DNA from: an uncultured Desulfobulbaceae bacterium
Lineage (GTDB): Bacteria; Desulfobacterota; Desulfobulbia; Desulfobulbales; Desulfobulbaceae
Assembly (NCBI GenBank): GCA_947259225.1
Contig: CAMYLK010000014.1
Location: 1-64,000 of the forward strand
Reading direction: 5' to 3'
Length of the DNA stretch: 64,000 nucleotides
The position numbers were made by a program, and so were the translations under genes. Of the stretch, positions 32,743-49,673 are shown piece by piece. Numbering within the stretch: the first letter of the stretch is position 1; every line of letters starts with the position of its first letter. The notes under the pieces are model-generated. The model saw nothing but the letters and a program-made list of their open reading frames with translations. It ran no database searches and was not told the origin of the DNA.

Positions 32743-33630
32743 ATGAGTGCAAAAATTATTAGTGGAACTGAAACAGCAAAAGCTATTCGCGAAGAACTAA
32801 AAACCGAAGTTGATGACCTCAGGGAAAAACACAACATTACCCCCGGCCTGGTCACAATTCTAGTCGGGGAGGATCCGGCTTCCCAATCCTATGTTGCGGC
32901 AAAAAACAAAACCGCCCACGCCCTTGGCATTTATTCTGAGCAGTTAACACTTCCCGCGGAAACCAGCGAACAGGAGCTGCTTGAGCTGGTTGATAAATAT
33001 AATAAAGATCCGAAAATCCATGGTATCCTTGTTCAGCTGCCTTTACCAAAACATATTAATGAAGGTAAAGTCCTTTTTGCCATTGATCCAGACAAGGATG
33101 TGGACGGCTTCCATCCTGTCAATGTCGGCAAAATGATGGTTGGCGAGCAATGCTTTCTGCCATGCACTCCCCACGGAGTAATTGAGTTGATTCAACGCTC
33201 AGGTACAGAATCAAGTGGCGCCGAGGTTGTTGTTGTAGGCCGTTCAAATATTGTAGGCAAACCGGTTGCAAACCTCATGCTTCAGAAGCGTGATGGTGGT
33301 AACGCCACGGTCACCCTCTGCCACACCCGCACAAAAGATATGGACCTTCATACAAAACGTGCTGACATATTAATTGTTGCGGCTGGTGTCGCCAATATGA
33401 TCAAGGCGGATCAGGTGAAAGAAGGTGTGGTGGTTATTGACGTTGGTGTAAACCGCATCGGCATGTCGGATAGCGGCAAGGCTATTCTGGCTGGTGATGT
33501 AGAATTTGAATCGGTCAAGGAAAAAGCGGCAGCAATTACTCCGGTTCCCGGTGGTGTTGGTCCGATGACTATCACCATGCTCATGAAAAACACTGTCCAG
33601 TCAGCCAAACAGCATGCGGGCTTGGCATAA
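32743..33630 (+). CDS. folD: Methylene-THF dehydrogenase / methenyl-THF cyclohydrolase
   Basis: A 295-residue bifunctional enzyme interconverting 10-formyl-, methenyl- and methylene-tetrahydrofolate with NAD(P). FolD signatures: TPGLVTILVGEDPASQSYVAAKNKTA with catalytic Lys, GILVQLPLPKHI, DKDVDGFHPVNVGKM, and VVVGRSNIVGKPVANLM. SD AAGGAG is 6 nt before ATG. As first gene of the cluster with cooS, metF-acsD, acsB and acsC, it provides the C1 carrier chemistry of the Wood-Ljungdahl methyl branch. Confidence 0.96.
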   Translation: MSAKIISGTETAKAIREELKTEVDDLREKHNITPGLVTILVGEDPASQSYVAAKNKTAHALGIYSEQLTLPAETSEQELLELVDKYNKDPKIHGILVQLPLPKHINEGKVLFAIDPDKDVDGFHPVNVGKMMVGEQCFLPCTPHGVIELIQRSGTESSGAEVVVVGRSNIVGKPVANLMLQKRDGGNATVTLCHTRTKDMDLHTKRADILIVAAGVANMIKADQVKEGVVVIDVGVNRIGMSDSGKAILAGDVEFESVKEKAAAITPVPGGVGPMTITMLMKNTVQSAKQHAGLA

Positions 33631-33711: not shown

Positions 33712-35709
33712 ATGGCCAAATCACATGGATGCGATAGTTGTAATGAAATAACAGGCGCATCAACCATTGACCTGTTGAATCAAGACTTGGCGAAAAAAGT
33801 AAGAACAGCATATGACCGGCTTGAAGATCGAGGCATGTCTGCCTGTCTTTTCGGTTCCGGAGGCACCTGCTGCAAGATATGCAACATGGGCCCATGCCAG
33901 ATTATAGACGATGTAGACCAGATGCTCGGTGTATGCGGAGCGACAGCTGATACAGTTGCCGCCAGGAATTTTGCACGCATAATTGCAGCCGGCACTGCTT
34001 CTCATACTGATCATGCGCGGGAGATGGTTCGTGGCTTCATAGCCACAGCCAAGGGAGAAACGCCTCACGAAATCAGAGACGTAGACAAACTCCATAAAAT
34101 GGCAGAACTGTTCGGCATTGAGACCGAGGGACGCGACAAGAACGAAATCGCCATAGAATTGGGTGAAAAGGCCCTGGCTGAGTTCGGCCAGCAGGAGGGC
34201 ACCCTGACTTTTCTTAAACGGGCTCCGAAAAAACAACAGGAGATCTGGAAAAAACTGGGAGTTGAGCCGCGTGGTGTTGATCGCGAAGTAGTTGAGATGA
34301 TGCACCGCACTCACATGGGTGTTGATCAGGAATATCATAACATTATGCTGCAAGGTGCCAGGTGTGCACTTGCTGACGGTTGGGGTTCATCCATGCTCTC
34401 CACCGAGCTGACAGATATCATGTTCGGCACACCCGTTCCCAAGCGGGCGATTGTTGATCTTGGCTGCCTGAAGGAAGACCACGTTAACGTGACGGTCCAC
34501 GGTCACGAACCACTTTTGGCTGAGTCCCTCTGCCTTGCTGCAGAGCAAGAGGATATTCTTGAACTGGCCAAAAAGGTTGGTGCCAAAGGTATCAACCTGG
34601 CCGGCGTCTGCTGTACAGGAAATGAAATTCTCATGCGCCGCGGTATACCAGTCGCCGGTTCCTTTATCCAGCAGGAGATGGTTCTTGCTACCGGTGCTGT
34701 TGAGGCCATGGTCGTTGACGTTCAGTGCGTCATGCAGTCTGTCGCCCAGGTTGTCAAGGAGATGCACACCGATATAATCACCACAAACTACCGTGCAAAA
34801 ATGCCTGATGCGATTCACATCCAGTTTGAAGAACATGATGCAATGAATTCCGCTAAAGAGATCCTGAAGAAGGCAATCGGTAACTACAAGAAACGCGGAG
34901 CACATTATATTCCTAAGGAAGATAAGTTTGACGTAGTAGTCGGCTTCAGTCACGAGACAGTCAATTACATGCTTGGCGGACGTTTTCGTGGATCTTATCG
35001 TCCCCTTAACGACAATATAATCAACGGTCGTATTAAGGGTGTAGGAGCCATAGTCGGTTGTGAACATTATAAATATGCGGATGACGTTCACTTTAAAATT
35101 GCTAAAGAGCTGATCAAGAACAATGTCCTGGTTCTTGCTACCGGCTGTGCGGCATCGGCTCTTGGTCGTCGTGGTCTGATGCGCCCGGAAGCAGCTGCAG
35201 AATATGCCGGTGCCGGTCTTGCTGAAGTCTGTGAAACTGTCGGCATCCCACCGGTTTTGCATGTAGGTTCCTGTGTTGACAACAGCCGTCTGCTGATTGC
35301 TCTGACCGAGATGGTTAATGAAGGCGGTCTTGGTGAGGACATTTCCGAACTTCCTGCCTGCGGTACTGCTCCTTTGTACATGTCTGAGAAAGCTGTGGCC
35401 ATTGGTCAATACTTTGTCAGTTCCGGAGCCCATGTTGTTTTCCAGAATCTTCCAACAGGTGGTGCTAAAAAGTTTAACGAGTTCCTTCTCGGAAGCATGA
35501 AAGAACTGTACGGCGCCAATTGGGCTGTGGAAGAAGACCCCATCAAGCTGGCCCAGCATATGATCAAGGCCATAGATGAAAAGCGTGAAGCACTAGGCAT
35601 CAACAAGAAACAAGAGCGTGTCCTGATGGATATGCAGATGCGCCGTGATCTCGAAGGCCAGGCTCTGCCAGGCACGGGATGCGGTGGAGAAGGGGATAGT
35701 CACGCGTAG
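33712..35709 (+). CDS. cooS: Carbon monoxide dehydrogenase catalytic subunit (Ni-Fe-S)
   Basis: A 665-residue homodimeric CO dehydrogenase subunit reducing CO2 to CO with low-potential ferredoxin. Residues Cys7/Cys10 suit the inter-subunit D-cluster; Cys45, 53, 54, 57 and 62 (ACLFGSGGTCCKICNMGPCQ) supply the B-cluster. C-cluster-type motifs follow (GVCCTGNEILMRRGIPVAG, DVQCVMQ, GCEHYKYADD, TGCAASALG, VGSCVDNSRLL). Length is typical of CooS/AcsA. It lies 81 nt after folD and is followed by metF-acsD, acsB and acsC, so it is the CO-making half of the CODH/ACS here. SD CAGGAGG is upstream of the ATG. Confidence 0.97.
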   Translation: MAKSHGCDSCNEITGASTIDLLNQDLAKKVRTAYDRLEDRGMSACLFGSGGTCCKICNMGPCQIIDDVDQMLGVCGATADTVAARNFARIIAAGTASHTDHAREMVRGFIATAKGETPHEIRDVDKLHKMAELFGIETEGRDKNEIAIELGEKALAEFGQQEGTLTFLKRAPKKQQEIWKKLGVEPRGVDREVVEMMHRTHMGVDQEYHNIMLQGARCALADGWGSSMLSTELTDIMFGTPVPKRAIVDLGCLKEDHVNVTVHGHEPLLAESLCLAAEQEDILELAKKVGAKGINLAGVCCTGNEILMRRGIPVAGSFIQQEMVLATGAVEAMVVDVQCVMQSVAQVVKEMHTDIITTNYRAKMPDAIHIQFEEHDAMNSAKEILKKAIGNYKKRGAHYIPKEDKFDVVVGFSHETVNYMLGGRFRGSYRPLNDNIINGRIKGVGAIVGCEHYKYADDVHFKIAKELIKNNVLVLATGCAASALGRRGLMRPEAAAEYAGAGLAEVCETVGIPPVLHVGSCVDNSRLLIALTEMVNEGGLGEDISELPACGTAPLYMSEKAVAIGQYFVSSGAHVVFQNLPTGGAKKFNEFLLGSMKELYGANWAVEEDPIKLAQHMIKAIDEKREALGINKKQERVLMDMQMRRDLEGQALPGTGCGGEGDSHA

Positions 35710-35793: not shown

Positions 35794-35828
35794 AAGATAT
35801 GGATCGTTTTCATAGCGATCCATATCTT
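35794..35828 (+). promoter_or_regulatory. Perfect hairpin between cooS and metF-acsD
   Basis: AAGATATGGATCG (35794-35806) and CGATCCATATCTT (35816-35828) are exact reverse complements with a 9-nt loop. No T-run follows, so it is not a standard terminator. It sits 14 nt before the AAGGAGG ribosome binding site of metF-acsD and may be an mRNA processing or stabilising element, or a partial attenuator. Confidence 0.7.
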
Positions 35829-35852
35829 GAATTTGTTCATTAAGGAGGATTG

Positions 35853-38489
35853 ATGAAATCGGGGAGCAATCTTGAACGAGTGCTCACCAGCGGCAGTTTT
35901 GCCGTAACAGGTGAGCTCGGTCCGCCGAAAAACAGTGACCCGGATGTGGTCAGGAAAAAAGCACGGCTGTTAAAAGGCAACGTTGATGCAGTTAATATTA
36001 CCGACTGCCAGACTGCTATTGTCAGAATGTCGAGCATTGGAGCCGGACTGATAACCCAGTCAGAAGGGGTTGAGCCGGTCATCCAGATGACCTGCCGCGA
36101 CAGAAACAGAATCGGCATGCAAAGTGACCTGATGGCAGCATCGGCATTAGGTTTGAAAAATTTGTTATGCCTGACCGGTGATCACCAGAAATTTGGGAAT
36201 CATCCTGGATCCAAGGGCGTTTTTGACATGGATTCTATCCAGATGCTCGGTATGGTACGGGATATGCGGGACGAAAAAAAGTTCCAGTGCGGCGAGGAAA
36301 TTAAGGGGGCCGCTCCTAAACTTTTCATTGGTGCTGCAGCCAATCCCTTTGCCTATCCTTTTGAATTCCGTGCTGTCCGCCTTGGCAAGAAAATTGCCAA
36401 TGGTGCTGACTTTACTCAGACCCAGATTATCTACAATGTCGACAAATTCTCCAAATTCATGGAAATGTGCCGTGAGCTTGGTCTTGATGAGAAAGCATAT
36501 ATCCTTGCCGGTATTACACCTCCAAAATCTGTTGGCATGGCGAGATACATGAAAAATTTCGTTCCCGGCATGGATGTGCCCGACGAAATCATAAAGAGAA
36601 TGCAGGGCGCAAAAAACAAACCGCAGGAAGGTATCAATATAGCTGTTGATATTATCCAGCAGGTAAAAGAGATTAAGGGTGTTGCCGGCGTTCATGTAAT
36701 GGCCATCGAGTGGGAAGAAGCTGTTGAGGAAATTGTCGAAAAAGCCGGCCTCCTTCCCAGGCCGACATTCGACGAAGTTGAAACTAAAACAGTTTTAGTT
36801 CCTTCGGCTGAGGCCATAGTTGTCCGTGGTGAAGGAGATACTGATCTTGCTGAAGCAAAAACCGAGGCAGAACAAATCCTAGCTGCTGCCCGGCAGGAAG
36901 CCGAAACAATCAGGCAGCAGATTTCTGCTGGTCAGCCCGTTACAACAACATCACAATTAACAGATACAGTTGCCATTTCTACAGATGATGCAGGAGAACA
37001 TGAGATGAATGAAAAAGAGCGCCAATTGGCGTTGGATTCTGTAAAACAGGGACTCGATGCTTTAAAGAAGGCGTATGGTCTCAATGATGATCAATTCGAT
37101 GCGTTGATCAAGTTCATTGATGCGGAAGCTATTCTGAAAAAAGAACCGCCTGTATCAGGCGGAGTGCAGCCTGCCGCAGTACCTGAGGCCGCAACACCAG
37201 CAGCAGAACCCGTAACAGCACCACCTGCTGAAGACAAAGCTAAAGCTGAGGCAGAACAAAAAGCACAGGATGTAGCTGCTGCCAAAACTCAAGCTGAAGC
37301 AGTTGCCAAAGCCAAGGCCGAGGGCGATGCTAAAGCTGCTGCAGAGAAAAAGGCGAAAGAGGAGGCAGCCGTTAAAGCAGAGGCAGAGGCCAAAGCCAAA
37401 TCAGAAGCTGAAGCAAAAGCCAAGGCCGAGAAAGAGAAAGCCGAGCCCGAAAAACCAAAAGCCAAGGCACCAGCCAAAGCTGTTCCAGCTGAACTGGCAG
37501 CACCTGAACTGGCGCTGGAAAGCATTCCTTTTGCCGAGAGGGCTACCAAAGTGCCTGCGACTTCCTACAAGGTGGATTACAGCGGCGCTATCAGGGAAAC
37601 AGTTCTTGGAAACGGTGATAATACAATAACAGTCGGTGGATCAGAAGTAATGCCATTCCACCTGTTTGAAGGCAATATGCCTCGGAAACCGCTAATCGCC
37701 CTGGAAATTCAGGATGTCAAGCCTGACAACTGGCCGGATACTCTGACAAAATACTATGATGATGTTCTTGACAATCCTGTCGCCTGGGCCAAAAAATGTA
37801 TTGAAGAGTATAATGCCGACGCACTGAACATTTACCTGATTGGAACAGATCCTAACGGCGAGAACCGCCCTTCAGCAGATGCAGCAAAAGATGCTGCCGC
37901 AGTTATTGAAGCCGTTAATGTGCCGATCATTGTCTGGGGATGCGGGAACAATGAAAAGGACACCGAGACCCTGCGTGAGATAACCTCAATTATCGGCGAC
38001 AAAAAGGTTTGCCTGGCACCTCTTGAAGATGCCAACTACCGTTCAATCGGTGCAACTGCCATGGCATTCCAGCACCCCATGGTTGCTGCATCCCCCATTG
38101 ACGTCAATCTTGCCAAGCAGTTGAATATCCTTCTCGAAAATCTGGGAGTGCAACTTTCGACCGTAATGATGGATCCTTCGGTAGGCGCTCTTGGTTACGG
38201 AATAGAATACACATATTCGGTCATGGAAAGGATCCGGCTTGCCGCCTTGACCCAGAAGGATGAGAAGCTCCAGGTTCCGATCATCTGCAACCTTGGACGA
38301 GAAGTCTGGAAAACGAAGGAAGTCACCCTGGCATCAGATGAACTTCTCGGTGATCAGGAACAACGCGGCATTATGATGGAGGCGATGACCGCTAACTGTA
38401 TGCTTCTGTCCGGTGGTGAGGTTTTGATAATGCGCCACCCTAAAGCTGTGAACATGACAAAATCCCTGATCGAAGGCCTCATGGGCTGA
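35853..38489 (+). CDS. metF-acsD: MetF-AcsD fusion (methylene-THF reductase / corrinoid Fe-S protein small subunit)
   Basis: An 878-residue single frame. Residues about 1-300 are methylene-THF reductase (GELGPPKNSDPD, LLCLTGDHQKFGNHPGSKGVFDMDSIQ in parts, FTQTQIIYNVDKF). Residues about 385-560 are linker: a short helical piece beginning MNEKERQLALDS, then a long Ala/Lys/Glu-rich low-complexity stretch. Residues about 565-878 are AcsD/CdhD, the small corrinoid iron-sulfur protein subunit (VMPFHLFEGNMPRKPLIALE, DALNIYLIGTDPNG, MDPSVGALGYGIEYTYSVMERIR). Normally these are separate genes. Start is ATG at 35853 after AAGGAGG; TTG at 35850 is less likely. An internal start at 37005 may also be used. 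Confidence 0.9.
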   Translation: MKSGSNLERVLTSGSFAVTGELGPPKNSDPDVVRKKARLLKGNVDAVNITDCQTAIVRMSSIGAGLITQSEGVEPVIQMTCRDRNRIGMQSDLMAASALGLKNLLCLTGDHQKFGNHPGSKGVFDMDSIQMLGMVRDMRDEKKFQCGEEIKGAAPKLFIGAAANPFAYPFEFRAVRLGKKIANGADFTQTQIIYNVDKFSKFMEMCRELGLDEKAYILAGITPPKSVGMARYMKNFVPGMDVPDEIIKRMQGAKNKPQEGINIAVDIIQQVKEIKGVAGVHVMAIEWEEAVEEIVEKAGLLPRPTFDEVETKTVLVPSAEAIVVRGEGDTDLAEAKTEAEQILAAARQEAETIRQQISAGQPVTTTSQLTDTVAISTDDAGEHEMNEKERQLALDSVKQGLDALKKAYGLNDDQFDALIKFIDAEAILKKEPPVSGGVQPAAVPEAATPAAEPVTAPPAEDKAKAEAEQKAQDVAAAKTQAEAVAKAKAEGDAKAAAEKKAKEEAAVKAEAEAKAKSEAEAKAKAEKEKAEPEKPKAKAPAKAVPAELAAPELALESIPFAERATKVPATSYKVDYSGAIRETVLGNGDNTITVGGSEVMPFHLFEGNMPRKPLIALEIQDVKPDNWPDTLTKYYDDVLDNPVAWAKKCIEEYNADALNIYLIGTDPNGENRPSADAAKDAAAVIEAVNVPIIVWGCGNNEKDTETLREITSIIGDKKVCLAPLEDANYRSIGATAMAFQHPMVAASPIDVNLAKQLNILLENLGVQLSTVMMDPSVGALGYGIEYTYSVMERIRLAALTQKDEKLQVPIICNLGREVWKTKEVTLASDELLGDQEQRGIMMEAMTANCMLLSGGEVLIMRHPKAVNMTKSLIEGLMG
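36991..37007 (+). promoter_or_regulatory. Possible internal ribosome binding site and start within metF-acsD
   Basis: CAGGAG (36991-36996) lies 8 nt before an in-frame ATG at 37005. Initiation there would give a 494-residue AcsD with the linker as its N-terminal extension, beginning MNEKERQLALDSVKQG. The SD quality and spacing are good, but no experiment is implied. Confidence 0.5.
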
Positions 38490-38547: not shown

Positions 38548-40755
38548 ATGTCGAAGATCATTTGTTCAGCAGCTATTCGCGGTGCCAAGAATATCATTGA
38601 CATGGCTGAAGAGACCTATGAAGAGGCCATAAAAAAATATGGCCCGGATCAGGAGGTTTCTTTTCCAAATACAGCCTATTTTCTGCCAATCATTTATTCC
38701 ATGCTTGGAGCCAAGGTGGAAAAACTTGGCGACATGAAGGACATCTTTCAGGAGTGTCGCACTCTTCTGCCACCAGTGGTAGCCGGAGATATCTGGCTAC
38801 CATACCTGGCACCGGCACTTGATGCAGGTATGGCAACATTTTTCGCCGAAGAAATGTACGAGTCCATTCGTTACCTGAATGACCCGAATTTCTATACAAA
38901 AACAGAAGACCCAACCGCGGAAAACATTTGGCTTGGTGCAGCTGATGACGTCATCTTCAGGAAACGAGGTGTTGAGTTTGTCGACGGAACAGCACCTGGC
39001 TTTGCAGCCATCATGGGGGCGCCACCAAACAAAGAGATTGCCAGCAAGATTGCACTGGAACTCCAGGAGAAAAACCTATACATTTTTATGCACGATGAGA
39101 CAAATGGTGTCAAGATGCCAGACCTGCTTGTCGAAAATGATGTTCAGGTAGGTTGGAGCACCCGTCTGGTTCCATTCGGACCGACATACACCTCCGCTGT
39201 TTTTGCCATTGGTTTTGCCTGCCGAGTCGCCATGGCATTCGGTGGCATAAAACCAGGTGATTACAATGGCAATCTGATCTACAACAAGGATCGTACTTTT
39301 GCCTTTGTCATGGCGTTCGGTCCAGTCAGTGACGAATGGTATGCCAACGCAGCCGGTGCTATCAACTGGGGATTCCCGACAATTTCCGATTACGATATAC
39401 CTGAGGTGCTTCCTACAGGTATCTGTACATACGAACATGTTGTATCCAATGTGCCACACGAAGAAATCGTCCAGAAAGCCATTGAAGTACGTGGGCTTAA
39501 GGTTTCCGTTACCAAGATCGACATCCCCATGTCTTTCGGTCCCGCTTTCGAGGGTGAACGTATCCGAAAGGACGACCTGTTCATGGAATGCGGAGGAGGT
39601 CGGACAACGGGCGTTGAGGTTCTTGTTTCAAAGGAAATGGACGAGGTCGAGGATGGCAAGGTTATTCTCGAAGGCCCGGATATTTCTGATATCGAAGAAG
39701 GACAGAACCTGCCGATCGCTATCCTTGTAGAGGTTGCAGGGCGTGAAATGCAGTCTGACTTTGAACCTATCCTGGAACGCCAGTTTCACCACCTGATCAA
39801 CTACGTCCAGGGCATCATGCATATCGGCCAGCGAAATATTATGTGGATTCGCATAGGCAAAGCTGCCGTTGAGAAAGGATTTTCTTTTAAACATATCGGA
39901 ACAGTCTTGCACGGTAAGCTACACCAGGAGTTCGGTGCCATTCTCGACAAGATTCAGGTAAAAATTTACACAGAGCAGGAAAAGGTTGATGAAGTAGTGG
40001 ATCTTGCCAGGACGGTTTATGAGGAACGTGACCTGCGCCTCGGTTCCATGACAGACGAAACTGAAGAAGTTTTCTACTCCTGTACCCTATGCCAGTCTTT
40101 TGCTCCAAGCCATGTATGTGTCATTACTCCCGAGCGTATCGGCATGTGCGGCGCATATAACTGGCTGGACGGCAAGGCCTCATTTCAGATCAATCCGACC
40201 GGACCCAATCAGCCCATCGATAAGGGTGAATGTACGGATGAAATCAATGGCTATTTCACAGGTATTAACGATTTCGTTAACCAGGCCTCCAGGGGAGCTG
40301 TCAGCGAGGTAAGCTGCTATTCGCTCATGAACAACCCCATGACCGCATGTGGGTGTTTTGAGTCAATCGCTGCAATGCTGCCTGCCTGTAATGGCATCAT
40401 GGTTGTCAACCGTGACTATATGGGAATGACGCCTTCTGGCATGAAGTTCACTACCCTGGCCGGTATGGCTGGCGGCGGCATGCAGACCCCGGGTTTCATG
40501 GGTGTGTCCAAGCATTATATGACAAGCCCTAAACTTTTCCTGGCCGAGGGCGGACTTAAGAGGCTTGTCTGGATACCCAAGATACTTAAAGATGAGATTG
40601 CTGACAAACTCAAGGCCCGTTGTGAAGAGATCGGAATGCCTGAACTATTTGATATGATTGCTACGGAAGAGCAGGGAACTACAGAAGAAGAGATCCTTGC
40701 TTTCCTTAAAGAAAAAGGTCATCCGGCACTTGAAATGGAAACAGAATTAGGCTGA
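38548..40755 (+). CDS. acsB: Acetyl-CoA synthase catalytic subunit
   Basis: A 735-residue acetyl-CoA synthase that joins CO, a methyl group from the corrinoid protein, and CoA. A-cluster ligands are clear: Cys512, 515, 524 and 534 (CTLCQSFAPSHVC...MCGAY) bind the [4Fe-4S], and Cys601-Gly-Cys603 (TACGCFE) bind the distal Ni. N-terminal ferredoxin- and CODH-binding region and the middle domain are intact. SD AAGGGAG is 11 nt before ATG. It is flanked by acsD-bearing and acsC genes, 59 and 77 nt away. Confidence 0.97.
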   Translation: MSKIICSAAIRGAKNIIDMAEETYEEAIKKYGPDQEVSFPNTAYFLPIIYSMLGAKVEKLGDMKDIFQECRTLLPPVVAGDIWLPYLAPALDAGMATFFAEEMYESIRYLNDPNFYTKTEDPTAENIWLGAADDVIFRKRGVEFVDGTAPGFAAIMGAPPNKEIASKIALELQEKNLYIFMHDETNGVKMPDLLVENDVQVGWSTRLVPFGPTYTSAVFAIGFACRVAMAFGGIKPGDYNGNLIYNKDRTFAFVMAFGPVSDEWYANAAGAINWGFPTISDYDIPEVLPTGICTYEHVVSNVPHEEIVQKAIEVRGLKVSVTKIDIPMSFGPAFEGERIRKDDLFMECGGGRTTGVEVLVSKEMDEVEDGKVILEGPDISDIEEGQNLPIAILVEVAGREMQSDFEPILERQFHHLINYVQGIMHIGQRNIMWIRIGKAAVEKGFSFKHIGTVLHGKLHQEFGAILDKIQVKIYTEQEKVDEVVDLARTVYEERDLRLGSMTDETEEVFYSCTLCQSFAPSHVCVITPERIGMCGAYNWLDGKASFQINPTGPNQPIDKGECTDEINGYFTGINDFVNQASRGAVSEVSCYSLMNNPMTACGCFESIAAMLPACNGIMVVNRDYMGMTPSGMKFTTLAGMAGGGMQTPGFMGVSKHYMTSPKLFLAEGGLKRLVWIPKILKDEIADKLKARCEEIGMPELFDMIATEEQGTTEEEILAFLKEKGHPALEMETELG

Positions 40756-40831: not shown

Positions 40832-42184
40832 ATGGCGTTAACCGGTATACAGATATTAAAAATGCTGCCGAAAACGAATTGCGGTGATTGCAGCATCCCG
40901 ACATGTCTTGCTTTTGCCATGAAGGTGGCAGCCGGTCAGGTAGAGATTGATGCTTGCCCGCATGTCAGTGATGAGGCAAAAGAGACAATTGGCGAAGCCT
41001 CGGCACCTCCGATCAGGACAATCAAAATGGGTAGTGGAGACGCCGAATTTACTGCCGGTGGCGAAACGTGCCTGTTCAGACACGAAAAAAGATTTGAAAA
41101 TCCGACCGGTATAGCTGTAATGGTCTCCACCGGCGATAATGAAAAGACTGTTGACGCCAAAATCGAACGCTTTAACAAACTTGAGTACGAACGTGTCGGT
41201 GTCTTGATGCGTGCTGATCTGATTGTGGTTAAGGATAACGACGGCAACGGAGATGCCTTCACAGGTTTAACCCAGAAAGTTCTGGAAAAGTCTCCCGGAG
41301 CAGCAGTCGTACTGATGACTGACAGTGCTGATAACATGAAGGCTGCGGCTGCTGCGTGCGGTGACCGCAAACCTCTTCTTTTTGGAGCTAACGCAGACAA
41401 TTGGCAGGCTATGGGTGAACTGGCCAAGGAAATCGGGTGTCCGCTTGGAGTTCAGGGCAAAACCCTTGATGATCTGGTCGAAATTTCCGGCAACCTTGTT
41501 GAAGCAGGACATAAGGACCTCGTTATTGATTCCGGTGCAAGAACTCTGCGCGGAGCTTTTGAGGATAATGTCGTGTCCCGCCGTTCCGCCATCAAGGAAA
41601 AATTCAAACCACTTGGTTTTCCGACCATAACTTTTCCCTGTGAAATGACTGACGACCCGATGATGGAAGCCATGATTGCTTCTGTACTGATGGCAAAATA
41701 TGCCGGTATTGTTGTTCTCTCAGACCTACAGGGTGAGGTGCTTTTCCCCCTGCTGCTTGAACAGCTCAATATTTTCACCGATCCTCAGCGGCCCATGGTT
41801 GTCGAGGAAGATATTTATCCTCTTGGTGGACCCGGCGAAGATTCACCTGTTCTTATTACCTGTAACTTCTCGCTTACTTATTTCATTGTTTCAGGCGAAA
41901 TAGAGGGTTCGAAGGTTCCGTCATGGCTGTTGATAAAGGACACTGAAGGATTGTCTGTTCTTACCGCCTGGGCGGCTGGAAAATTCGGGGCGGATCTGAT
42001 AGCTCAATTTGTAAACAAATCAGGGATAGGCGACAAAGTAAAACACCGCGAATTGATCATACCGGGATATCTGGCAACGATCAAAGGTGAACTCGAGGAG
42101 GAGCTTCCCGACTGGACTATAACAATTGGTCCTCGTGAAGCGGGTCATCTGCCGGCATTCCTCAAGGAATGGCAGCCTGCTTAA
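40832..42184 (+). CDS. acsC: Corrinoid iron-sulfur protein large subunit
   Basis: A 450-residue CoFeSP gamma subunit that carries the cobamide and passes the methyl group to AcsB. The N-terminal [4Fe-4S] ligands are Cys17, 20, 25 and 42 (KTNCGDCSIPTCLAF, ACPHV), followed by a TIM-barrel and a C-terminal corrinoid-binding Rossmann-like domain (DLIAQFVNKSGIG, IIPGYLATIKGELEEELPDWTI in parts). SD AAGGAGG is upstream of ATG. Its methyl donor AcsE is not encoded in this window. Confidence 0.96.
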   Translation: MALTGIQILKMLPKTNCGDCSIPTCLAFAMKVAAGQVEIDACPHVSDEAKETIGEASAPPIRTIKMGSGDAEFTAGGETCLFRHEKRFENPTGIAVMVSTGDNEKTVDAKIERFNKLEYERVGVLMRADLIVVKDNDGNGDAFTGLTQKVLEKSPGAAVVLMTDSADNMKAAAAACGDRKPLLFGANADNWQAMGELAKEIGCPLGVQGKTLDDLVEISGNLVEAGHKDLVIDSGARTLRGAFEDNVVSRRSAIKEKFKPLGFPTITFPCEMTDDPMMEAMIASVLMAKYAGIVVLSDLQGEVLFPLLLEQLNIFTDPQRPMVVEEDIYPLGGPGEDSPVLITCNFSLTYFIVSGEIEGSKVPSWLLIKDTEGLSVLTAWAAGKFGADLIAQFVNKSGIGDKVKHRELIIPGYLATIKGELEEELPDWTITIGPREAGHLPAFLKEWQPA

Positions 42185-42249: not shown

Positions 42250-45200
42250 ATGTCAACAGTCACATTAATCATAGACGGTAACGAGATAGTTGCCGAAAAG
42301 AATCTGACAATCCTCGAGGTGGCCAAGCGTTCAGGTATAACCATACCTACACTTTGCTACGTCAAAGGAAAGCCTACTGACAAGCCATGTAATATCTGCG
42401 TGGTTGAGATAGCTGATCATGCAAAGCACACCATATCTTCCAACCTGAAAGTCGAAGGTTTGTACCGGGCATGCACGACACTTGCTTTGGACAGTATGGA
42501 TATCAGAACTGCCAGTGAAAATGTAATTGCATTCCGCCAGGACCGACTTGCAGCTATCTCCAAGACACATTTCGGCGATTGCAAAGCGCCGTGCAACCTG
42601 ACATGTCCCGGCCAGATAAATGTCCAGGGATATATTGCCCATGTCGCTCGAGGAGAGTACGAAGAAGCGCTTCGCCTTGTTATGGAACGCAACCCGGTTC
42701 CTTTTTCCGTCGGCCGTGTATGCCCGCGGTTTTGTGAAACACGCTGCCGCCGAATCCTTGTTGACGAGCCGGTTTCCATAAATCATCTCAAACGTTTTGT
42801 CGCAGACTGGTGCATGACTCACGAAATAAACCTGAGTATCCCGCGTGATAAACCTACCGGTAAGCGAATTGCAGTCATTGGCGGTGGTCCTTCAGGATTA
42901 TCCGCTGCATACTTCCTGACCAGAAAAGGCCATGATGTCACCATTCTCGAAGCAGCATCGAAGCTCGGAGGTGCGCTGCGTTATGGTTTTCCAGAGTACA
43001 AGATCCCAAAGGATGTGCTGGATTACGAGGTCAATTCCATCCTGAAAATGGGTATCTCTATTCGGCTGAATCAGAAATGGGGTAAAGATTTTACTATTCA
43101 GGACCTTCATGACCAGGGATTTAACGCAACATTTATTGGCATCGGGGCCAATGTGGACGAACCGCTTGAAATCCCCTGTTCCGAAAAACCGCACGTATAC
43201 CCTGCCACTAAGTTTCTTCGTTTAATAAACGAAGGCAAGGATATCGAATTCGGAAAAAGTGCAGCTGTCATCGGTGGCAATAATACAGCTATGGAAGTTG
43301 CCAGAAGCCTTGTGAGAATGGGCGTGGAGGATGTTACAATCATTTACCCGCGGGCCAAGATAGAAATGCCTGCTCATCAGAGAAACATCCGTGAAGCCGA
43401 AAATGACGGCATTCAATTCCTGCTGATGGCTTCGCCTACCGAAATTTGCGGTAAGTCCCCCGAAGAAAGTCGCCTCAAACTTGATCTGATACGAATGAAA
43501 CTGGGCGAACCTGACAAACGAGGTCGCAGGGAACCCTTACCCATCCCCGGTTCCAACACCAGTATGTATGTAGATACCATTGTTTCCTCTCTTGGTCAGA
43601 CTGCGGTAAAGGAACATATTGATGGGGGAGAAATCGAGTCGCAGATTCAGCTTTCACCCAAGTGCACCATAGTTGCAAACCCTCGTTCTTCTCAGACCAG
43701 TGTTGAAGGTGTGTTTGCAGGTGGTGATGCAGTGACAGGACCAAAATCTGTCATCCAGGCAGTTGTATCTGCACGTCGTGCAGCATCAAATATCCATGCA
43801 TTTGTAATGGGTGAAGAAAAAGAGCCCGCTGAAAGTCGTTTCAATTTTACCCGCGGCAAGTCTTTCGACGATGTGGATTCAAAGAATTTTGAAGACGTCA
43901 GTGAAAAAATGCGCGAAAAAATGCCTGAGCGGTTACCTGAAACAGCTGTCCAGGATTTCGACGAGGTAAAACTCGGTTTTACTGAGAAAATGGCCCGCCG
44001 TGAAGCAGATCGATGTCTGTCATGCGGGTGTACAGCGTTCGAACGGTGCGACCTTAAACGCCATGATATAGAAAACAACATTAATATCAATAAAACAGGT
44101 ATGGGAGTCAAGCCGCTTTACAAGGTAGACAACTCTCATCCTGCCATAACAGTTGATCCCAATAAGTGTATATTCTGTTTTCGCTGTGTACGTTATTGTG
44201 AGTATGACGCCCTGGAACTGAGAGCCAAGAAAGTGGTCGGAGCAGGTTATCCCTTTGGTGTTGAGATCAAGTTCAAGGACAATTGTGTTTCCTGTGGGAA
44301 ATGCGTGGAATATTGTTCTACAGGGGCTTTGAACAAGAAAAACCGGATCGTTCCCATCCAGTCGGAAGAAGTAAAAACGATTAAGAGCACGTGTCCCTAT
44401 TGCGGTACCGGATGTCAATTAGAGATCAAGGTCAAGGGGAATACTGTGATGGAAATCGGTGCTGACCTCGACCAGATGCCGAATTTTGGTGACCTCTGTG
44501 TTAAGGGCCGTTTTGGTCACAACTTCATTCAACATCCAGATCGTTTGAAAACACCCCTGATACGCCGCCAGAAAAGTGGTGCTCTTGAGCCGGCAAGCTG
44601 GGCTGAGGCTCTTGACTTTATCGCTGTCAAGTTCAGAAGGATACTCGAGGACAAGGGGCCCGATGCCTTGGCAGGATTGTCTTCGGCACGATGCACCAAT
44701 GAAGAGAATTATGCTTTCCAGAAATTTTTCCGGGCCGGTATAGGGACAAATAATATCGATCATTGTGCCCGTTACTGACACAGTCCTACGGTGGCCGGTC
44801 TGGCCACAGCATTCGGATCTGGAGCAATGAGCAACAACATTGCCGGTATAGTGGATAACGATGTTCTTTTTGTTATTGGTTCCAATACGACGGAGACACA
44901 CCCGGTAATAGCACTACGCATGCTGGAAGCCGTCAAACGTGGAGCCAAATTGATTGTAGCCGATCCGCGACACATAAAACTCGCAGACAGTGCTGTTATC
45001 CGGCTCAATCACCGTCCGGGTACAGATGCTGCGTTAATCAATGCAATGTGCCATGTCATCCTGAACGAGGGTATGACAGATCAGAAGTTTATAGAAAAAC
45101 ATACGGAAGGTTTTGAAGCATTTTCCAGTGCTGTTGTTGACTGTACCCCTGAGTGGGCAGAAAAAATTACCGGGGTACCGGCAGCGGACATAATCGAGGC

Positions 45201-46500
45201 ATCTAAACTATTTGCCGGCGCAGAACGTGCAGGTACCTATTACACCATGGGCATAACGCAACATACATCTGGTACTTCCAATGTTTTGGCTTTGGCAAAC
45301 CTGGTACTCGCTACAGGAAATCTTGGGAAGCCTGGCGCTGGCCTCAATCCATTACGTGGTCAAAACAATGTCCAGGGTGCCAGTGACATGGGCTGTAACC
45401 CGGTCAATCTGCCCGGTTACCAGAGGGTTGACAACGAGGATGCCAGAAAACGTATCGGCGGGATATGGGGGCAGGAGCCCAAAGCTGAGCCGGGTTTGAC
45501 AGCTACAGAAATGACTCCTGCCATTGTTGATGGCGCGATCGCTGGTTTGTGGATAATGGGTGAAAATCCAGTCATGAGCGACCCCAACATGTCTCATGTC
45601 CGTGAAGCATTTGAGAAGCTTGATTTCCTCCTGGTGCAGGACATTTTCCTGACCGAAACGGCTGAGATGGCTGATGTTGTTCTTCCAGCTGCCTCTTTTG
45701 CAGAAAAAAACGGTACCTTTACAAATACAGAACGCAGGGTACAGAGAATTCGCAGAGCTGTTAGGCCTCCTGGAGAGGCCCGAGACGACTTGACCATCGT
45801 AAACCTCGTAACAGCCCGCATGGGTTATGATCATATTGTTCCTTTGTCCCAGGGATTTACCAACCGCTTGTATAACGAAGGTGGATTCGTGACAGCACCA
45901 CCGCTCTGTGATGAAGTATATGAAGAAATGGGTAAAGTCTGGCCGGCAATAGCCGGTATCAATTATGACCGCCTTGAAGATCAGGGATTACAGTGGCCAT
46001 GTCCTGATGAGAACCATCCCGGCACACCTGTTCTGTTTGAAAATGGATTTCCGATTGGTAAAGCAAAATTTTCTTCGGTAGAATGGAAAGGACCGCAGGA
46101 GATGCCAGATGAAGAGTTTCCTTTGTACCTCTCCACCGGAAGGGTACTCGCCCAGTATCATACCGGTACCATGACACGTCGGTCCCGTATACTTGAAGAT
46201 GTGGACAACGGTCCGTATGTTGAGATCAATCCTCAGGATGCTGAGACACTTGGCATCAAGAATGGTGATAATGTAAGGGCTGTCTCACGCAGAGGAAACA
46301 TCACAATACCAGCAATGCTTACAGAACGTGTTAACAGTGGGATGGTATTTATACCCTTTCATTACCATGAAGCTGCGGCTAACCTGTTGACCAATGATGC
46401 CCTGGATCCGGTTTGCAAGATTCCTGAGGCCAAAGTGTGTGCAGTACGGCTGGAAAAGATCACGGGTGATTTAAATATAGTTGAGGTTGATCATAAATAA
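42250..46500 (+). CDS. fdhA: Selenocysteine formate dehydrogenase fused to NuoG-like and GltD-like modules
   Basis: A 1416-residue protein if TGA at 44776-44778 is read as selenocysteine (U843). Order: [2Fe-2S] domain (LCYVKG...KPCNICVVEI), GltD-like flavoprotein with CKAPCNLTCPGQINVQGYIA, GGGPSGLSAAYFL and IGGNNTAMEVARSLV (FAD and NAD(P)H sites), two [4Fe-4S] sites (Cys640 CIFCFRCVRYC; Cys679 CVSCGKCVEYC), then FdhA from Cys715 (CPYCGTGC). The UGA lies in HCARY-U-HSPTVAGL, matching the Sec site of formate dehydrogenases. It likely interconverts CO2 and formate with NAD(P)H and/or ferredoxin. Frames 42250-44778 and 44779-46500 are in phase. No good SD precedes ATG. Confidence 0.93.
44776..44807 (+). 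promoter_or_regulatory. SECIS element of fdhA with UGA-Sec codon
   Basis: UGA at 44776-44778 is followed after 12 nt by a perfect stem GTGGCC (44791-44796) / GGCCAC (44802-44807) closing a GGTCT loop. Spacing and the GGUCU apical loop match the known E. coli fdhF SECIS closely. The SelB-binding element lies inside the coding sequence. Confidence 0.9.
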
Positions 46501-46610: not shown

Positions 46611-49600
46611 ATGGGAAAAGGAATGGAACACAGGGCCGGATCAGTCATGGTCGTTGGCGGAGGCATTGCCGGTGTACAGGCTGCGCTCGACCTGACAGAA
46701 CTGGGCTACTATGTCTATCTGGTTGAAAAGGAAGCCGTTGTGGGCGGAGTCATGGCCCAGCTTGACAAAACCTTTCCAACGAACGACTGCTCGCTCTGAA
46801 TTCTCGCGCCAAAACTGGTAGAGGCCGGTCGGTCTCCAAACATCGAGATGCTCACCAATGCAGATTTCCTGTCATTGGATGGTAAACCAGGCGATTTTAC
46901 AGCTAAAATCAGGCTGCGTCCCCGTTATATTGATGCTGACAACTGCACGGCATGCGGACTCTGCACACAGTATTGTCCGCGGCACCACGTGGATGAATAC
47001 AACGAAGGCTTGTCACTTACACGCCCGATACATATAGACTATGCCCAGGCTGTACCGGCAACGTATTATATTGATCCGGGTTCGTGCCTCCATCTGCAGC
47101 ATGACACCTGCCAGATATGTGTACCGGTATGCCAAAGCCATGCCATTAACTTTGACCAGAAACCTGAAGAACTTGATCTCAAGGTAGGTGCAGTAATTCT
47201 GTCACCGGGATTTGGGAAGATTTCTGAAGAAACACTTGAGAAATACGGATACAATAAACATCCTGATATTGTTACCAGCATCGAGTTTGAACGCATGACC
47301 ACAGCATCAGGTCCGTTTATGGGTGAAGTGAAATGCTTTTCCGACGGTCGTCATCCAAAACGGATGGCCTTTATTCAGTGTGTCGGTTCCCGCGACCTTG
47401 GATGTGACAACGGCTACTGTTCATCGGTGTGCTGCATGTATTCTATCAAGGAAGCTCTGGTCGCCAAGGAACATGATCCTGAAGTAGATATCACTATTTA
47501 CTATATGGATATCCGTACCCAGGGCAAAGAATTCGACAAGGCTCGCGAGCGCGCCGAATCCATGGGTATCAAGTTTGTCAGGGCAAAGGTTGCAGACGTA
47601 ACTCCCTGGGAGAATCGGTTGCAGTTGACCTTTTCCACCCTGAATGCCAAGCATGTTTTTGAGCCTTATGACATGGTAGTACTGTCGGTAGGCCTGGAGT
47701 CACCGCGTGACGCACAGGGTATAGCAGAAAAAGCAGGTATCGAACTGAATAACTATGATTTCTGCAAGACCGGGACCTTTTCACCATTGGCAACAACACG
47801 GGATGGTGTCATTGTTGCCGGAGCTTTCCAGGGACCAAAAGATATCCCTGAAAGCGTTACCCAAGCTACCGCGGCTGCAGGCATTGCTGCAGGTATGCTT
47901 GCCAAACAACGGGGGCAGGGAGTTATCCATAAATCTTATCCTGACGAACAGCCCTTTGACGATGAAATCAGGATTGGTGTGTTTGTCTGCCACTGCGGCA
48001 TTAATATCAGTTCAGTCGTAGATGTAAAAAATGTTGAAGATTCGACTGAGGGTATGGAAGGCGTCGTCTATCATACTGACAGTCTCTATTCCTGCTCTCA
48101 GGATGCCCAGGAAGTTCTTAAAGATAAAATTAAGGAACACGACCTGAACAGGGTTGTAATCGCTGCCTGTTCTCCTCGGACCCACGAGCCACTCTTTCAG
48201 GAAACACTTAAAGACGCAGGGCTCAACCGGAGCCTGATTGAAATGGTCAACATTCGCGATCAATGCTCATGGGTTCATGCCGCTGAACCTGAGGCTGCCA
48301 CTGATAAATCCAGGGATCTCGTCCGTATGGCGGTTGCCAAGGCGCGTGGCATGAAACCCCTGCCCGAACAGACTGTTCCGGTGACCCCGAAAACTTTGAT
48401 CATCGGCAGCGGAATCGCCGGCATGACAGCAGCCATGTCTCTTGCCGAGCAAGGTTTTGAGTGTTTGCTTCTTGAGAAGGGGAAAACGCTTGGCGGCAAT
48501 CTAGGCCTGCTGAACCATACATTGGATCAGGAAGAAACAGGGAAACACCTGAAACAGCTCGTTGCCAAAGTAAAAAGGAACAAGAAAATCAATGTGGCTA
48601 CAGAAGCTGAACTTACTTCTATATCCGGCTTTATAGGAAACTATGCCTCAGTTATAGCTACGGGCTCTGGCAAGAAAAAGACCGAGCAGACTTTTGATCA
48701 TGGAACGGTTGTTCTTGCCACCGGTGGTCATGAACATCGCCCTGAAGGATATCTGCTTGACAAGAGCAACAAGGTTGTCACCCAGTTGGAACTTGAGAAA
48801 CGTTTGGCCGGTAAAGCCAAGAATCGGGCTCCAGGAACTGTTGTTATGATTCAATGCGCCGGTTCCCGGGGAGATGATCTTAACTACTGTTCCAAAGTCT
48901 GTTGTAATCATGCGGTAAAAAACGCTCTTAAAATTAAAGAAATTAATCCAGATGCGCGTGTTATTGTCCTGTATCGTGACATGCGGACGTATGGTTATGC
49001 CGAAGACGCGTATCGTGATGCACGTCTCAAGGGAGTCATCTTTATACCATATGAAATGGACAACAAGCCTGAACTCTCTGAAAAAGGGCGGAATCTGCGT
49101 GTCAAATTTTTTGACTCCATCATGCAGGAGGAAATGGATATAACACCTGACCTCGTAGCTTTATCCGTAGGCATAGTACCTGACAGCACTGAGGAGTTGA
49201 GCAAACTGCTCAAAGCACCGTTGACTGATGACAAATTCTTCCTCGAAGCCCATGTTAAGCTTCGGCCGGTTGAACTGCCTGTAGACGGGATGTATGTGTG
49301 CGGTCTTGCCCATGGTCCCAAGCCCCTTGATGAAACTATTTCACAGGCTCAGGCTGCGGCAGCCAAGGCCGCGCAGCCTCTTGTCAAGGGTTGCGTGTCT
49401 GTAGCTCCCATTGTTTCGAGTGTTGATCAGGAACAATGCATCGGCTGCAGCTTGTGTGCAAGCCTCTGCCCATTCAAGGCTATAGAAATGATAAAAGTTG
49501 ACAAGAAACGCAAAGCACAGACAATAGCCGCTTCCTGCAAAGCATGCGGTATCTGTGCCAGCCACTGCCCGAGTTTTGCAATTTCCATGGGTGGGTTTAC

Positions 49601-49673
49601 CAACGAACAGATCAATTCCCAGATAAGCGCCTTTGGCGATGTCAGTGAAAAAGAAACTGCTGAGGTATCATAA
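46611..49673 (+). CDS. hdrA: Selenocysteine HdrA-like iron-sulfur flavoprotein, double-length
   Basis: A 1020-residue protein with TGA at 46797-46799 read as U63 in [19 protein letters not shown]; the family has Cys here. The N-terminal half has [17 protein letters not shown] (FAD) and [4Fe-4S] ligands from Cys112 ([11 protein letters not shown]). A second HdrA-type half starts near residue 450 ([18 protein letters not shown]) with its own FAD motif ([16 protein letters not shown]). C-terminal ferredoxin sites start at Cys943 ([11 protein letters not shown]) and Cys976 ([11 protein letters not shown]). HdrA is the flavin-based electron-bifurcating subunit. HdrB and HdrC are absent. SD CTGGAG precedes ATG. 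MvhD follows with a 1-nt overlap. Confidence 0.92.
46797..46836 (+). promoter_or_regulatory. SECIS-like hairpin of hdrA with UGA-Sec codon
   Basis: UGA at 46797-46799; GAGGCC (46821-46826) pairs with GGTCTC (46831-46836) including one G-U pair around a GGTC loop. The loop begins 27 nt after the UGA, longer than in fdhF, but within the range I recall for bacterial SECIS elements. Confidence 0.7.

What the first reader, a model, noticed from the sequence alone, without database searches (positions are those of the whole stretch)
35853..38489. MetF-AcsD fusion with low-complexity linker and a possible internal start
Two steps of the methyl branch (methylene-THF reduction and corrinoid methyl transfer) are joined in one frame with a roughly 180-residue Ala/Lys/Glu-rich linker. 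An in-frame ATG at 37005 with a good SD could also make free AcsD, so the locus could give two products at a set ratio. MetV, the usual MetF partner in acetogens, is not seen.
Basis: partly seen in the sequence, partly recalled or inferred. Interest (0 to 1): 0.7.

Follow-up and report, generated by a model that had tools for sequence, protein, structure and literature searches.

The report
One gene, two carbon-fixation proteins
A gene of the carbon-fixing (Wood-Ljungdahl) pathway in sulfur-cycling Desulfobulbales joins two enzyme parts in one protein, and a start signal hidden in its middle, kept letter for letter in 117 of 117 relatives, almost certainly also makes the second part alone.

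Summary
35853-38489 is one open frame of 878 aa: MTHFR (MetF) domain 1-300, a linker of about 270 aa, and AcsD/CdhD 567-878. It is no sequencing error: full-length matches at 65-85% identity run through Desulfobulbales and sister groups. The fusion itself is known: a 2016 Desulfurivibrio genome paper lists an "mthfr/acsD fusion" (PMC5016858).

The internal start appears to be new. In 117 of 117 distinct relatives the in-frame ATG (37005, Met385) follows a GGAG kept at synonymous sites. Gly381 is always GGA (about 14% of Gly codons) with 0 inferred codon changes; the other 42 conserved Gly columns have 19 or more, median 31. The site is also unusually open, A-rich downstream, and matches the true acsD start in two relatives where the gene is split. 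The gene most likely makes MetF-AcsD plus free AcsD (494 aa). Use of the start and the ratio are untested.

Corrections: MetV does exist, in an unlinked HdrC/MvhD/MetV cluster. The methyltransferase AcsE is a separate gene. Only about 120 aa of the linker is Ala/Lys/Glu-rich.

The parts
35853..38489 (+). MetF-AcsD fusion ORF, 878 aa (long product)
   Evidence: one open frame; Pfam/NCBIfam; orthologous open frames in Desulfobulbales and sister groups
35842..35848 (+). Shine-Dalgarno AAGGAGG of the long product
   Evidence: sequence; duplex energy -11.5 kcal/mol
35853..36752 (+). MetF / MTHFR domain, residues 1-300
   Evidence: PF02219 E 1.3e-41; modelled as a TIM barrel with high confidence; PDB relatives are MTHFRs
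36753..37004 (+). linker present only in the long product, residues 301-384, with predicted helix 329-358
   Evidence: AlphaFold2 secondary structure; A346 and A335/E338 conserved
36992..36996 (+). internal Shine-Dalgarno AGGAG, inside codons Ala380-Gly381-Glu382
   Evidence: GGA in 117/117 distinct sites; 0 codon changes on the tree; duplex -7.4 kcal/mol in 91 of 92
37005..37007 (+). internal in-frame start ATG, Met385, of free AcsD (494 aa, to 38489)
   Evidence: ATG in 117/117; A-rich codons after it; low opening cost in 92/92; matches acsD start in split relatives L082/L083
37005..37136 (+). helical-hairpin module, residues 385-428, N-terminus of both split and predicted free AcsD
   Evidence: conserved in 93 sequences; helices 383-407 and 412-428; no Pfam hit
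37137..37550 (+). Ala/Lys/Glu-rich linker, residues 429-566, long predicted helix 463-522
   Evidence: sequence; AlphaFold2; weak TolA hit E 3e-7
37551..38486 (+). [quoted passage not shown]
   Evidence: NCBIfam E 2e-145; PDB 4djd chain D E 1e-80
33712..35709 (+). CO dehydrogenase catalytic subunit (AcsA/CooS)
   Evidence: TIGR01702, 615.9 bits, over cut-off
38548..40755 (+). AcsB, acetyl-CoA synthase alpha/beta
   Evidence: NF040764, 1076.5 bits, over cut-off
40832..42184 (+). [quoted passage not shown]
   Evidence: NF003195, 589 bits, over cut-off
32743..33630 (+). FolD, methylene-THF dehydrogenase/cyclohydrolase
   Evidence: PF02882 and PF00763

Best explanation
One gene encodes two proteins. 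From 35853 the ribosome makes MetF-AcsD (878 aa). From the internal start at 37005, with its own Shine-Dalgarno written in synonymous codon choices, it makes free AcsD (494 aa) carrying the helical hairpin and the long helical linker. Both pair with AcsC to form the corrinoid iron-sulfur protein (CFeSP), so only part of that pool carries a tethered MetF, keeping the source of methyl-THF near the acceptor without forcing MetF:CFeSP to 1:1. Shown by sequence: the fusion, its conservation, and selection on the internal start beyond the protein code. Inferred: that ribosomes use the start in cells, that both forms assemble with AcsC, and that the purpose is stoichiometry.
For: (1) Met385 is ATG and Gly381 is GGA in 117/117 distinct sites, and the preceding codon ends in A or G in 116, although GGA is only 14% of Gly codons (as low as 1.6% in one gene) and GC3 spans 0.31-0.89. 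(2) Parsimony on the protein tree: 0 codon changes at Gly381; 19 or more, median 31, at the other 42 conserved Gly columns. (3) Nearly all of the most synonymously constrained 8-codon windows lie at 375-394. (4) Codons 387-388 rank first in the gene for GAA and AAA, like codon 2 of the annotated start. (5) Internal SD at or below -7 kcal/mol in 91/92 against 6.9% of 2701 other in-gene ATGs. (6) Opening cost of the start region 5.7 against 13.4 kcal/mol at other Met codons, lower in 92/92. (7) In two relatives (L082, L083) metF and acsD are separate neighbouring genes and acsD starts, after its own SD, at the homologous ATG; their fused neighbours L075-L078 have ATG plus SD there too. (8) No second AcsD gene was found in the genome.
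Against: No ribosome profiling, N-terminal or size data were available. The internal start is missing or weak in several sister groups that have the same fusion (f78 and most of f91; 13 of 34 sequences reach -7 kcal/mol against about 15% expected per window), so free AcsD is not needed wherever the fusion exists. The internal SD is GGAG(A), moderate in strength; in this genome the long start is stronger (-11.5 against -7.4). The functional role rests on pathway logic only.
Confidence: 0.83

Rival explanations
1. The GGAG is an in-gene pause signal that slows the ribosome between the MetF and AcsD domains for co-translational folding; only the full-length protein is made.
For: It sits between domains, at a predicted disorder-to-helix border.
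Against: A pause would not require an invariant ATG at fixed spacing, A-rich following codons, an open mRNA around the ATG, or coincidence with the acsD start of split relatives.
Confidence: 0.08
2. The peptide [AS]GE[HD]xMNE is itself conserved for a structural or processing reason and the DNA follows.
For: G381, E382, M385, N386 and E387 are invariant as residues.
Against: It cannot explain GGA in 117/117 or 0 codon changes where other invariant Gly columns have 19 or more.
Confidence: 0.03
3. Free AcsD is made, but from a separate transcript (internal promoter or processed mRNA) rather than from the full mRNA.
For: The internal start could work on any mRNA that includes it.
Against: No plus-strand sigma-70-like site between 35853 and 37005; the number found in the region is that of shuffles. 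Other promoter types are not covered.
Confidence: 0.06
4. The fusion is an assembly or sequencing artefact and the genes are really separate.
For: Two relatives (L142, L177) show a break.
Against: Those two breaks are runs of N in scaffolds; full-length frames without stops are found across the order, including G010 and G027, each on one contig.
Confidence: 0.005

Closest known systems
mthfr/acsD fusion of Desulfurivibrio alkaliphilus AHT2 (methylene-THF reductase DaAHT2_0827; PMC5016858)
   Same: a Desulfobulbales member; same two domains fused; CODH, ACS and FolD genes at adjacent locus tags
   Different: the paper names the fusion only in an abbreviation list; the passages read mention no internal start, linker anatomy or distribution
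MetFV-HdrABC of Moorella (as described in PMC10553843)
   Same: MetF working with MetV and Hdr-type proteins; here MetV is encoded with MvhD and an HdrC-like protein
   Different: here MetF is fused to AcsD and MetV is unlinked
Genes giving a long and a short form of one protein, e.g. Salmonella spaO (PMC13059759) and the cobalamin-binding AerR (PMC6199135)
   Same: a second, shorter isoform from the same gene (abstracts only)
   Different: here the short product is a whole enzyme subunit that relatives encode as its own gene, and selection on the start is visible at synonymous sites
Stand-alone AcsD/CdhD with solved structure (PDB 4djd, 2h9a, 4c1n)
   Same: the AcsD domain
   Different: those chains are about 310-323 aa and lack the hairpin, helical linker and MetF

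Membership tests
MTHFR (MetF, PF02219) | complete MTHFR domain match | tested here: met
   profile 2-287 of 287, 143 bits against cut-off 24
MTHFR (MetF, PF02219) | conserved residues at active-site positions | tested here: inconclusive
   E21, D110 and Q191 are invariant in 17 orthologs; D110 and Q191 align with GD and TQ of human MTHFR; equating them with catalytic residues rests on general knowledge
MTHFR (MetF, PF02219) | reductase activity and electron donor | not testable with these tools
   no biochemistry
AcsD / CdhD (PF03599) | AcsD domain over the family cut-off | tested here: met
   PF03599 142 bits (cut-off 24.8); NF003376 381 bits (cut-off 280); the stricter WLP_AcsD exception model scores 316, below its 430
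AcsD / CdhD (PF03599) | partner AcsC encoded in the same cluster | tested here: met
   40832-42184, NF003195 589 bits
Gene with an in-frame internal translation start | start codon with SD at usable spacing | tested here: met
   AGGAG-N8-ATG; -7.4 kcal/mol
Gene with an in-frame internal translation start | selection on the start beyond the protein sequence | tested here: met
Gene with an in-frame internal translation start | short product observed | not testable with these tools
   needs N-terminomics or ribosome profiling

The most novel reading that the evidence does not exclude
Across an order that includes cable bacteria and sulfur disproportionators, one gene yields MetF-AcsD and AcsD from two starts, building a mixed corrinoid-protein pool in which a fraction carries a tethered methylene-THF reductase that feeds methyl groups locally; the ratio is tuned by the internal start.
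Probability: 0.45. Interest if true: 0.72.

Novelty: new variant of a known kind. Interest (0 to 1): 0.6.

Why it matters
It turns a domain fusion that was only named in a genome paper into a testable two-product gene at the centre of CO2 fixation in an ecologically important order. It gives a clear case in which an internal start can be read from synonymous sites alone, and annotations that treat the protein as one 878-aa chain would miss the second product. It also suggests how a fused gene could be split again without losing expression of its second part: in the split relatives acsD begins where fused neighbours have the internal start.

Tried and rejected
Sequencing or assembly error: rejected (two breaks looked at are N gaps). 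MetV absence: rejected. Missing AcsE, which would have made the fusion an unusual methyltransferase: rejected, AcsE-like genes are on C12 and C124. Internal promoter: nothing above shuffles. A separate second AcsD gene: none found. Known domain for the hairpin module: no Pfam hit. Strong local RNA structure at the internal start: z -1.67, not convincing. Whole-chain AlphaFold2: MetF good, AcsD part poor with 17 sequences, so used only for secondary structure. Internal start universal to the fusion: rejected, it is patchy outside Desulfobulbales. Literature: no paper in the searched library was found to describe the internal start.

Full report
What is there. The open frame 35853-38489 encodes 878 aa with an MTHFR domain at 7-299 and an AcsD/CdhD domain from about 572. 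It lies in a cluster FolD - CODH - fusion - AcsB - AcsC - formate dehydrogenase - HdrA-like. The closest solved relatives are MTHFRs for the first part and corrinoid iron-sulfur protein small subunits for the last. AlphaFold2 gives a mostly confident barrel for MetF, a helix at 329-358, a hairpin at 383-428 and a long helix at 463-522; the AcsD part of the model is poor.

How widespread. Full-length orthologs in one frame occur in most families of the order sampled. Named matches are Desulfobulbaceae, Desulfocapsaceae/Desulfocapsa and the cable bacteria Electrothrix and Electronema, so the order is taken to be Desulfobulbales. Longer versions, some with TPR repeats in the linker, occur in sister groups and in Thermodesulfobacteria-like genomes. 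In an AcsD tree all fused sequences form one clade (100/100, midpoint root); the only two split sequences, L082 and L083, nest inside it, which suggests secondary fission, although the fork that places them is weak (92/69). Two other apparent breaks are runs of N. A 2016 genome paper already lists the fusion (PMC5016858); a 2026 study of the pathway in Desulfobacterota does not mention it in the text searched (PMC12827605).

The internal start. In 93 aligned orthologs Met385 is invariant while the residue before it varies (E, A, K, V, I, T, D). Over all loci fetched there are 117 distinct sites: ATG in 117, GGA at codon 381 in 117, and a purine at the third position of codon 380 in 116. GGA makes up 14% of Gly codons in these genes on average and 1.6% in the lowest. 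Counting codon changes on the protein tree, Gly381 has 0; the next lowest of 43 conserved Gly columns has 19 and the median is 31. One sequence, L137, was left out of the 92-sequence tests because its 5' end is garbled; it too reads GGA ... ATG. Codons 387 and 388 rank first in the gene for GAA and AAA, matching the AAA bias at codon 2 of the annotated start. The SD duplex is at or below -7 kcal/mol in 91 of 92, against 6.9% of 2701 other in-gene ATGs. Opening the mRNA from -18 to +12 costs 5.7 kcal/mol on average against 13.4 at other Met codons, and less in every one of 92 genes. The SD of the annotated start varies widely across the same genes (median -6.0, range -3.3 to -11.6; -11.5 here), so the internal signal is the steadier of the two.

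Independent support. In the split relatives acsD begins MQNEKELL after GGGGGAAAGA or CTGGAGGATAGA, at the start of the same helical module. Fused members of the same family (L075-L078) carry ATG with SD energies of -8.8 to -10.2 at that place. L052, L068 and L236 carry ATG, and L059 and L066 GTG, with SD -9.3 to -11.4 at the homologous position. Other sister sequences lack it, so the protein alone does not demand it.

Mechanism. Most likely both products form the corrinoid protein with AcsC, and only the long form brings MetF. The methyltransferase AcsE is a separate gene, so the fusion places methyl-THF production beside the acceptor rather than fusing two consecutive catalytic steps. MetF's usual partner MetV sits in an unlinked HdrC-like/MvhD/MetV cluster. 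In 58 genomes of the order, the six without a MetV domain are all among those without the fusion, though a few genomes have MetV and no fusion match. Use of the start, complex composition and the ratio remain untested.

Verdict.

Noticed in passing
window 42250-46500: Formate dehydrogenase fused behind a GltD/NfnB-like flavoprotein; in-frame TGA at 44776-44778 in the motif CARYUHSP marks a probable selenocysteine (1416 aa). The gene would be cut in two by ordinary ORF calling.
   Followed up: partly
window 35794-35828: A 15-pair stem (AAGATATGGATC...GATCCATATCTT) between the CODH gene and the fusion, about 14 nt before the long product's SD; possible attenuator or mRNA end.
   Followed up: no
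L238 7844-9569 (own genome contig C4): Unlinked HdrC-like, MvhD and free MetV genes in a row, the likely electron partners of the MetF domain.
   Followed up: partly
L088 2816-6001: In another family AcsD is fused to a CO dehydrogenase catalytic domain in one frame of 1062 aa that runs off the locus.
   Followed up: no
L086, L089, L090, L244, L245: Other Desulfobacterota AcsD frames carry an extension of about 200 aa after the AcsD domain; in L086 and L090 Pfam gives no convincing domain there.
   Followed up: partly
L236, L242 and L053-L066: In sister groups the MetF-AcsD linker contains TPR-like repeats (Pfam hits in L236 and L242; by eye in the others), so the tether has been remodelled repeatedly.
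   Followed up: partly
window 46848-49673: HdrA-like flavoprotein right after the formate dehydrogenase, in line with Hdr genes next to this pathway in other sulfate reducers (PMC10553843).
   Followed up: no
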